A stretch of DNA of 46,778 nucleotides. Source: an uncultured Bacillota bacterium (GTDB taxonomy: Bacteria; Bacillota_I; Bacilli_A; RFN20; CAG-826). Made by a program: the position numbers and the translations under genes. This document shows, piece by piece, positions 32,278 to 35,018 of this stretch. Each line of letters opens with the position of its first letter. Position 1 is the first letter of the stretch. The stretch covers positions 1-46,778 of the forward strand of contig CASFVT010000032.1 in assembly GCA_949298195.1 (NCBI GenBank). The letters run 5' to 3'. The notes below the pieces were generated by a model that did no database searches, was not told where the DNA came from, and was given only the letters and a program-made list of their open reading frames with translations.

Positions 32278-32696
32278 AGCTAACCATCCTCGACACCCTT
32301 CTGGAAAACCCGCTCATCATCACCATCCTCATCGTCCTCGTCTTCGGGCTCCTCGTCGGCGGGGTCATCCTCATCAAGAAGTACGTTCCCTATTTCAAAA
32401 ACGACGACAAGCCGAAAACCCCCGAGGAAATCGCGGCCGAGGAGGTGAAGCGCCTCGTCGTCGACCCCGAGGAAGAGGAGAAGGAAGAGGAACTCGATAG
32501 AGCCAGCGAGGAACTCTCGCGGGAAAGCCGGGAAGCCCCGGAGGTAGACCATAGCGAAGAGGAACTCGCCCGGGCCACCCGCCCCATCGAGGAAAAAGAG
32601 GCCCTGGAGGCGATGCAGCGCTACGCCGCCGAACACCCCGAGGAAGGGGAAGCCGCCATTAGGGCCCGGGAGGAGCAAGGGGGAAAGGCGGAATAA
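32274..32696 (+). CDS. Small membrane protein with acidic cytoplasmic tail
   Basis: This 140-residue protein is not recognised. One membrane segment (residues 13-34, IITILIVLVFGLLVGGVIL) is followed by KKYVPYFKNDD and a long Glu/Arg-rich, probably helical or coiled-coil tail (45-140). Lys after the membrane segment suggests the tail faces the cytosol. ATG 32274 overlaps the Fic-like stop (ATGA). Its own stop TAA overlaps the presumed ATA start of hemW (ATAA), so the three genes form a coupled unit between lepA and hrcA. Confidence 0.75.
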   Translation: MKLTILDTLLENPLIITILIVLVFGLLVGGVILIKKYVPYFKNDDKPKTPEEIAAEEVKRLVVDPEEEEKEEELDRASEELSRESREAPEVDHSEEELARATRPIEEKEALEAMQRYAAEHPEEGEAAIRAREEQGGKAE

Positions 32697-33787
32697 AAGC
32701 CCGCGCCCTCTACATCCACATCCCCTTTTGCCGGCATTTCTGCCGCTATTGCTCCTTTGCCCGCGTCTATTACCGGCCCGACTGGGCCTTTTCCTATCTA
32801 AGGCGGCTCCGCGAGGACCTCGCTTCCTTCAAAGGGGAGGAAGGGCGCTTCCTGAGCATCTACCTCGGTGGGGGAACCCCCTCGGTCCTCCCCCCGGAAC
32901 TCCTCGCGCCCCTTCTCGAGGAACTGAGGCCCCTCCTCCAGCCGGGCGGGGAATTCGATTTCGAGTGCAATCCCGAGGACGTCGACGCTGCGCTGGCGGC
33001 CCTCCTTGACGAAAAGGGGGTCAATCGGGTTTCCCTCGGCCTCCAGTCGAGCCGGGGTAGCGCCCTCCTTTTCCTCGGCCGCCATCACGACTTCGCGACC
33101 GTGGGGAAAGCGGTGGGGCACCTCCGTTCCGCCGGGATCAAGCGTCTCAGCCTCGACCTCATCTACGGCCTTCCCGGGGAAACCCTCGACGAGGTCGAGA
33201 TGGACGTCGAGGCGCTCCTGAGCCTCGATCCCGGCCACTTCTCGGCCTATTCCCTCGAGATCAAGGACGGGACGCCCCTCGAGAGGAAGGGGCTCCACGA
33301 ACGCCCCGATGCGGTTCTCAAGGAGCATTCGAGCCTCATCAAGGAAAAGGCCCGGGAGCGCGGTTACCTCCATTACGAGGTCTCGAGCTTCGCTAGACCT
33401 GGCGAGGAGAGCCGCCACAATCTCGTCTATTGGCACGACGAACCCTACGTCGGCCTCGGGATGGGCGCGGCCGGTTTCGAAGACGGGATCCGCTACGTCA
33501 ACCCCTCGACCCTCGTCGCCTACCTGTCAAAGGCCCCGCGGACGGAAGAGCACCCCTCGCTTGAAGAGGAAAGAGAATACTTTCTCCTCACCAACCTCCG
33601 CCTTGCCGCCGGCTTCCGCCTCGCGGAGGCCGCCCGGCGGTTCGGGGATTCCTTCGTCGAATCCTTGCTCGGGAAAGCCCGCCCCTTTTTGCATAACGGC
33701 CTCCTTCTACTCGAGGAGGGTTCTCTCCGCCCAAGCGAAGAGGGGCTCGATCTCCTCGACTACGTCCTGCGCGGGCTTTTCGCCTAG
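32693..33787 (+). CDS. hemW: HemW-like radical SAM protein with apparent ATA start
   Basis: This 364-residue member of the HemN/HemW family, a heme chaperone or coproporphyrinogen oxidase-like radical SAM protein, is placed just before hrcA as in Bacillus. It begins KARALYIHIPFCRHFCRYC with the CxxxCxxC cluster motif. It then has YLGGGTPSVLP, FECNPED, NRVSLGLQSS, LSLDLIYGLPGET, HYEVSSFARPGEESRHN and the C-terminal HemW domain. The frame has an upstream TAG at 32660-32662. Between it and the conserved IHIPFC motif there is no ATG, GTG or TTG. ATA 32693 lies in an ATAA overlap with the previous stop, preceded by GGGGGAAAGG. One G-to-A change from the common ATGA overlap would explain it. Earliest conventional start (GTG 33101) would delete the Fe-S motif. 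Confidence 0.88.
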   Translation: MKARALYIHIPFCRHFCRYCSFARVYYRPDWAFSYLRRLREDLASFKGEEGRFLSIYLGGGTPSVLPPELLAPLLEELRPLLQPGGEFDFECNPEDVDAALAALLDEKGVNRVSLGLQSSRGSALLFLGRHHDFATVGKAVGHLRSAGIKRLSLDLIYGLPGETLDEVEMDVEALLSLDPGHFSAYSLEIKDGTPLERKGLHERPDAVLKEHSSLIKEKARERGYLHYEVSSFARPGEESRHNLVYWHDEPYVGLGMGAAGFEDGIRYVNPSTLVAYLSKAPRTEEHPSLEEEREYFLLTNLRLAAGFRLAEAARRFGDSFVESLLGKARPFLHNGLLLLEEGSLRPSEEGLDLLDYVLRGLFA

Positions 33788-33893: not shown

Positions 33894-35018
33894 ATGACTT
33901 CCCGCGACGAAATCCTAAAGCTGATCATCGAGCATTTCATCAAGACGTGCGAGCCGGTCGGGAGCAAGGTCCTCAAGGAGGCCTACGGTCTCGAGGAGTG
34001 CTCGGCCAGCATCCGTTCGGCCATGGGGATGCTCGAGGCCGACGGCTACATCGAGAAACCGCATGCCGCGGCCGGGCGGGTCCCGACCGCCAAGGGCTAC
34101 GCCTACTACGTCGACCATCTCCGCCATGGCGGGGTCGACGAGACGGCCAAGAACGCCCTCCAGGGCATCCTCTCGGAGAAGAGCAAGTCGATTGAGGAGG
34201 TCATGCGGCAAAGCTGCGAGGTCCTCTCGTCGATGACCAACCTCGCCTCGGCCGTCCTCGGCCAGGGCGGGAAGGAGGAACGCCTCGTTTCCATCCAGTT
34301 GATTCCCCTCGGTGGGACGACGGCCTCGGCCGTCTTCGTCACCGACAAGGGCTACGTCGAGCACAAGACGTTCGTGATGGAGGAAGGCTCCTCCCCCGAG
34401 CGCCTCGCCTCGACGGTGAAGCTCATCAACGACCGGTTGACCGGCACCCCGATCGGGGAGCTGGTCGCCAAGCTCGAGGCCATGCGGCCCCTCCTCGAGG
34501 ACTTCCTCCTCGGGCAGGAGGTCCTCTACGACGCCATCATGGGGGCCCTCGCCGAGCTCCAGACGGAGCGCATCTCCGTCTACGGGGCCAAGGAACTCAT
34601 GAAACAGCCCGAATTCCAGGACGTCGACTCCCTCAAGCGCCTGTTGAGGGCCCTCGAGGATCCCGGGCGCCTCGTCGAAGGGGTCTCTTCCGGGAAGAAA
34701 AAGGACGTCGACGGGGTCGAGATCGCCCTCGGGGAGGATGAACTCGAAGGGCTCGCCATCGTCTCGGCGAGCGTCGACATCCCCTCGAACCCCGGGGTGA
34801 GCCTCACCCTCCTCGGCCCGAAGCGGATGGATTACGCCCGGGCGATGGCCACCTTACGTTACTTTGCCGAGCAGCTCGACCGCTACTTCGGCGGGAAAGG
34901 AGACAGCACGTGGACGAAGAAAAAGGAAAGCAGCCCGGCGAAAAGCGCGGGGAAGACGAAGAAGACGCCCTCCTCGGCGAAGAAGAAGGCCAAGAAAGCC
35001 AACCCGAACCCGAGATAG
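33894..35018 (+). CDS. hrcA: Heat-inducible transcription repressor HrcA
   Basis: This 374-residue repressor of class I heat-shock genes has an N-terminal winged helix (SASIRSAMGMLEADGYIEKPHAA, residues about 35-60) and the following AGRVPTAKGYAYYVDHL. A GAF-like domain (about 120-330) ends GVSLTLLGPKRMDYARAMATLRYFAEQLDRYF in outline. The last 35 residues are a Lys/Ser/Pro tail (KKKESSPAKSAGKTKK onwards) beyond the usual family end. This tail is encoded by DNA that also encodes the acidic grpE N-terminus in another frame. ATG 33894 follows AAAGGGG. It is self-regulated through CIRCE. Confidence 0.95.
   Translation: MTSRDEILKLIIEHFIKTCEPVGSKVLKEAYGLEECSASIRSAMGMLEADGYIEKPHAAAGRVPTAKGYAYYVDHLRHGGVDETAKNALQGILSEKSKSIEEVMRQSCEVLSSMTNLASAVLGQGGKEERLVSIQLIPLGGTTASAVFVTDKGYVEHKTFVMEEGSSPERLASTVKLINDRLTGTPIGELVAKLEAMRPLLEDFLLGQEVLYDAIMGALAELQTERISVYGAKELMKQPEFQDVDSLKRLLRALEDPGRLVEGVSSGKKKDVDGVEIALGEDELEGLAIVSASVDIPSNPGVSLTLLGPKRMDYARAMATLRYFAEQLDRYFGGKGDSTWTKKKESSPAKSAGKTKKTPSSAKKKAKKANPNPR

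What the first reader, a model, noticed from the sequence alone, without database searches (positions are those of the whole stretch)
32660..32730. hemW appears to start at ATA, in an ATAA overlap
An in-frame TAG (32660-32662) precedes the HemW frame, and the conserved IHIPFCRHFCRYC motif begins about 8 codons after ATA 32693. No ATG, GTG or TTG lies between. ATA overlaps the previous gene's TAA as ATAA, exactly where neighbours use ATGA. A single G-to-A change would convert both stop and start at once. AUA initiation is rare and normally suppressed by IF3, so hemW may be expressed at low level or through coupling.
Basis: partly seen in the sequence, partly recalled or inferred. Interest (0 to 1): 0.72.

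Follow-up and report, generated by a model that had tools for sequence, protein, structure and literature searches.

The report
Heme-chaperone gene starting at AUA codon
The hemW gene of this unnamed bacterium really seems to begin at the very weak start codon ATA, and because related species keep ATA there too, it looks like a lasting way of keeping the protein scarce rather than a sequencing error.

Summary
The HemW frame opens after TAG 32660-32662. It has no ATG, GTG or TTG before the CxxxCxxC motif, and ATA 32693-32695 overlaps the upstream TAA as ATAA. The protein passes NCBI's HemW cut-off.

It is unlikely to be a sequencing error. The two closest congeners, G030 (62% identical) and G002 (57%), also have an in-frame ATA there and no usual start for 68 codons. 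The three form a supported clade (98/92); its sister G012 uses GTG. G029 has only ATC. The other 27 readable genus members use GTG (18) or ATG (9).

Other genes of this clade also lack a usual start: rimP (ATC), a conserved 557-aa protein (ATC or ATA) and infC (ATC). The first two use ATG, GTG or TTG elsewhere in the genus.

Best reading: AUA is the authentic start, weakened by IF3 proofreading and probably helped by coupling to the upstream gene. Natural AUA starts are known in Staphylococcus aureus (PMC13009471), so this is a new case of a known kind. Expression was not measured.

The parts
32693..33787 (+). hemW (radical SAM heme chaperone), 364 codons read from ATA
   Evidence: TIGR00539 219.3 bits over cut-off 205.4; Radical_SAM and HemN_C domains
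32693..32695 (+). ATA, proposed start codon of hemW
   Evidence: only plausible near-cognate before the motif; in-frame ATA also in G030 and G002
32660..32662 (+). in-frame TAG that closes the HemW frame upstream
32677..32683 (+). AAGGGGG, Shine-Dalgarno-like (AAGGAGG with one G.U), 9 bases before ATA
   Evidence: G030 and G002 have AAGGCGG 9 bases before their ATA; spacing 7 is the genome mode, 9 the upper shoulder
32694..32696 (+). TAA stop of the upstream gene, overlapping ATA as ATAA
32274..32696 (+). upstream gene, 140 aa, apparent N-terminal membrane segment, no known family; next to hemW in most of the genus
32729..32752 (+). CRHFCRYC, radical SAM CxxxCxxC motif
33894..35018 (+). hrcA, first gene after hemW (lepA - two unknown genes - hemW - hrcA - grpE - dnaK - dnaJ)

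Best explanation
hemW is a functional gene whose translation starts at AUA (32693). The initiator tRNA pairs with the first two bases only; IF3 proofreading rejects most such complexes, so the protein is made at a low level. Ribosomes are supplied by a moderate Shine-Dalgarno site 9 bases upstream and, probably, by ribosomes finishing the upstream gene at the overlapping TAA. The weak start arose before this species split from its two closest held relatives and has been kept. Shown: absence of any usual start, gene intactness and selection, ATA in three species, intact IF3 gene. Inferred: low expression, IF3 sensitivity, coupling.
For: No ATG/GTG/TTG between TAG 32660 and the motif. In-frame ATA with no usual start for 68 codons in G030 and G002. 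Clade support 100/100 and 98/92. The resulting N-terminus (M)KARALYIHIPFC matches MRPRALYVHIPFC of G022, which starts at ATG in the same codon position, -12. SD-like AAGGNGG 9 bases upstream in all three. Selection on the protein: dN 0.37-0.42, dS 1.0-1.2. IF3 N and C domains present and conserved in G000, G030 and G002. infC itself starts at ATC after AGGAGG, so near-cognate starts appear to work in this lineage. AUA starts are shown in S. aureus at about 10-30% of AUG (PMC13009471).
Against: No expression data. The SD of hemW is weaker than the AGGAGG of infC and rimP. By nucleotide alignment the upstream stops line up rather than the two ATA codons, so strict base-by-base homology of the ATA is not certain. 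The fold of the region is unremarkable and gives no extra regulatory sign.
Confidence: 0.78

Rival explanations
1. Sequencing or assembly error: the true base at 32695 is G (ATGA), as in other genes of the window.
For: The assembly is a draft in 38 contigs with 6.95% estimated contamination; ATGA overlaps occur in the window.
Against: Two other species assembled separately have ATA at their hemW junction and no usual start.
Confidence: 0.04
2. Ribosomal frameshifting from the upstream gene makes a fusion protein, so hemW needs no start codon.
For: The two frames overlap closely; the upstream gene is nearly always adjacent.
Against: The upstream frame relates to hemW differently in G000 (stop at nt -35 from the first Cys codon) and in G030/G002 (stop at -34), no slippery heptamer is seen, and most congeners have a usual start for hemW of its own.
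Confidence: 0.03
3. Another weak codon inside the frame is the start, such as ATC 32714 or 32720 or AGG 32678.
For: ATC starts are used by infC and rimP in this genome.
Against: The ATC codons lie inside the conserved LYIHIPFC stretch; AGG is a very poor start (own knowledge); no SD fits better.
Confidence: 0.08
4. hemW is decaying in this species and its lost start marks a pseudogene.
For: No clear hemW was found in three genus members, G013, G015 and G016, all draft genomes.
Against: Open over 364 codons, all domains present, dN/dS about 0.35, same state in two further species.
Confidence: 0.05

Closest known systems
Natural AUA starts of Staphylococcus aureus infC, ccpN and citZ (PMC13009471)
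   Same: Chromosomal genes initiating at AUA; ccpN's non-canonical start is conserved between species; low initiation efficiency measured (about 10-30% of AUG)
   Different: infC and ccpN have strong extended SD sites and ribosome-profiling proof; here the SD is moderate, the start overlaps an upstream stop, and there are no expression data
AUU starts restrained by IF3 (Escherichia coli infC, pcnB; cited in PMC13009471)
   Same: AUH codon as start, expected to be restrained by IF3
   Different: hemW encodes no translation factor, so no feedback on itself is expected; AUA rather than AUU
Ordinary hemW with GTG or ATG start in the same genus
   Same: Same gene, same neighbour, same N-terminal length
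   Different: Usual start codon instead of ATA

Membership tests
HemW (TIGR00539) | Score above the curated family cut-off | tested here: met
   219.3 bits against 205.4
HemW (TIGR00539) | Radical SAM CxxxCxxC motif and HemN C-terminal domain | tested here: met
   CRHFCRYC; PF04055 88.6 bits, PF06969 35.8 bits
HemW (TIGR00539) | Binds heme and acts as heme chaperone | not testable with these tools
   biochemistry needed
Genes with a natural AUH (near-cognate) start | No ATG/GTG/TTG available upstream of the conserved protein | tested here: met
Genes with a natural AUH (near-cognate) start | Near-cognate start conserved in related species | tested here: met
   ATA in G030 and G002; strict nucleotide homology uncertain by about one codon
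Genes with a natural AUH (near-cognate) start | Strong, well-spaced Shine-Dalgarno site | tested here: inconclusive
   AAGGGGG or AAGGCGG, 9 bases upstream; weaker than the AGGAGG of infC and rimP
Genes with a natural AUH (near-cognate) start | Initiation at that codon shown experimentally and sensitive to IF3 | not testable with these tools
   ribosome profiling, mass spectrometry or reporter needed

The most novel reading that the evidence does not exclude
In this small clade (G000, G030, G002, G012, G035) start-codon discrimination has been rewired: several conserved genes (hemW, rimP, a 557-aa conserved protein, perhaps an ECF-like sigma factor) moved from ATG/GTG/TTG to AUH starts and form a set whose output follows IF3 activity. 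The apparent absence of IF3 in G012 would make it a natural test.
Probability: 0.25. Interest if true: 0.72.

Novelty: new member of a known kind. Interest (0 to 1): 0.45.

Why it matters
Gene finders that accept only ATG, GTG and TTG would call this hemW from GTG 33101, losing the catalytic motif, or miss it. A conserved AUA start in a housekeeping gene, with rimP and a further gene of the same clade on AUC/AUA, gives comparative evidence that near-cognate starts can be kept outside infC and offers a natural system for asking what sets start-codon stringency.

Tried and rejected
A GGAGG-ATAA pattern scan of the window was uninformative. The first script reading N-termini forgot to reverse minus-strand loci and was redone. 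The first stop-to-stop survey gave many false hits from overlapping and antisense frames; filtering by third-position divergence and SD left few convincing cases. Several flagged genes proved ordinary on inspection: psuG has an ATG 16 codons upstream, comFA a conserved GTG, and a deformylase-like gene a conserved ATG. An AUA-reading initiator tRNA was considered: the tRNA with anticodon UAU in G000 has a normal paired G1-C72 elongator-type end. Loss or damage of IF3 was considered and rejected for G000, G030 and G002. RNA structure over the junction is no stronger than in shuffles.

Full report
OBSERVATION. The sequence is as described. The HemW frame opens after TAG 32660-32662. Twenty-two codons separate it from the first cysteine of CRHFCRYC, and none is ATG, GTG or TTG. 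ATA 32693-32695 overlaps the TAA of the upstream 140-aa gene. The next usual start in frame is GTG 33101, behind the catalytic motif. The upstream gene itself begins at an ATGA overlap. The gene lies in lepA - unknown - unknown - hemW - hrcA - grpE - dnaK - dnaJ, a usual setting for hemW (own knowledge). The protein passes the curated HemW cut-off.

IS IT REAL? The window's genome is a draft assembly, so an error was the first rival. Sixty relatives were searched. Of 31 readable hemW N-termini in the genus, 18 have GTG, 9 ATG, 3 ATA with no usual start nearby, and 1 (G029) no usual start but ATC at codon -12. In two other families of the order all 39 newly read N-termini have a usual start, nearly always ATG. 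The three ATA species are G000, G030 and G002. In G030 and G002 no usual start lies within 68 codons of the motif. A tree of HemW joins them (98/92) with G012, which uses GTG, as sister (100/100). Divergence is large (57-62% identity, dS about 1), so ATA has probably stood for a long time. In G000 a change of ATA to ATG would only turn the upstream stop TAA into TGA, another stop; that it has not happened suggests, but does not prove, selection for the weak start.

A single ATGA-to-ATAA change would be recent and local. Instead, in G030 and G002 the junction is ATAAGTAA, and the upstream stop stands in a different frame relative to hemW (stop at nt -34 from the Cys codon, against -35 in G000). 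By nucleotide alignment the stops line up and ATA shifts by about one codon. So the exact ATAA overlap is particular to G000, whereas the ATA start is shared. The different frame relation also argues against a conserved frameshift fusion.

HOW IT LIKELY WORKS. AAGGGGG (G000) or AAGGCGG (G030, G002) stands 9 bases before ATA. The main spacing in this genome is 5-8, mode 7; infC and rimP use 9 and 8. The predicted N-terminus (M)KARALYIHIPFC has the length of that in G022, which starts with ATG at the same codon position. IF3 is encoded and conserved in the three species. IF3 disfavours weak third-position pairs (PMC10158994). In S. aureus natural AUA and AUU starts gave about 10% of AUG output, up to 30% for ccpN in rich medium (PMC13009471). 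From these the inference is low, IF3-restrained expression, with ribosomes partly delivered by the upstream gene. Neither step was measured.

IS HEMW ALONE? About 500 orthologous genes of G000 and G002 were compared (914 kb and 1172 kb). Four genes convincingly lack a usual start in both: hemW (ATA), infC (ATC), rimP (ATC, perfect AGGAGG) and a 557-aa protein of no known family (ATC), with a sigma-like gene possible (ATC and ATT). infC starts at AUH codons in the genus members read and in most of the order, as is textbook. rimP starts at ATC in G000, G002 and G012 but at ATG, GTG or TTG in the other genus members read. The 557-aa protein has ATC in G000, G030, G002 and G035, ATA in G012, and ATG in the rest of the genus where the start was readable. 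So the clade has gathered near-cognate starts in at least three genes beside infC. The survey is not exhaustive: it misses genes with chance upstream starts, and it covered about three quarters of each genome.

VERDICT. A real, conserved AUA start as far as sequence can show; a new example of a known kind, with an interesting clade-level pattern that deserves a proper survey.

Noticed in passing
L177:8401-8850 (G000 contig C27): rimP starts at ATC after a perfect AGGAGG in G000 and G002 (GGAGGT in G012), while the rest of the genus uses ATG, GTG or TTG.
   Followed up: yes
L153:17724-19394 minus strand (G000 contig C7): A conserved 557-aa protein without any Pfam or NCBIfam match starts at ATC (ATA in G012) in five species and at ATG elsewhere in the genus.
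   Followed up: yes
L163:2677-3270 (G000 contig C13): A sigma-70/ECF-like gene has no usual start near its conserved N-terminus in G000 and G002 (ATC and ATT aligned), with weak SD.
   Followed up: partly
G012 and G004 genomes: Neither IF3 domain was found in these 97% and 93% complete genomes; gap or true loss not settled.
   Followed up: partly
L081:38-113 minus strand (G000 contig C5): A tRNA-Ile with anticodon UAU, unusual in bacteria, in a genome that also has a TilS match barely over cut-off; contamination of that contig is not excluded.
   Followed up: partly
L150, ORF on the minus strand (G000 contig C7): A HAD-like phosphatase gene reads MKEY-stop-LYLIDFDGT where G002 has an open codon, so the start region is interrupted in G000.
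   Followed up: no
L166:12517-13458 (G000 contig C16): A gene that is one open frame in G002 is split by an in-frame stop in G000 and lacks a usual start near its N-terminus.
   Followed up: no
G029, L076 and L007: hemW of G029 has no usual start for 61 codons; ATC at codon -12 follows GAGGAG, an apparently independent near-cognate start.
   Followed up: partly
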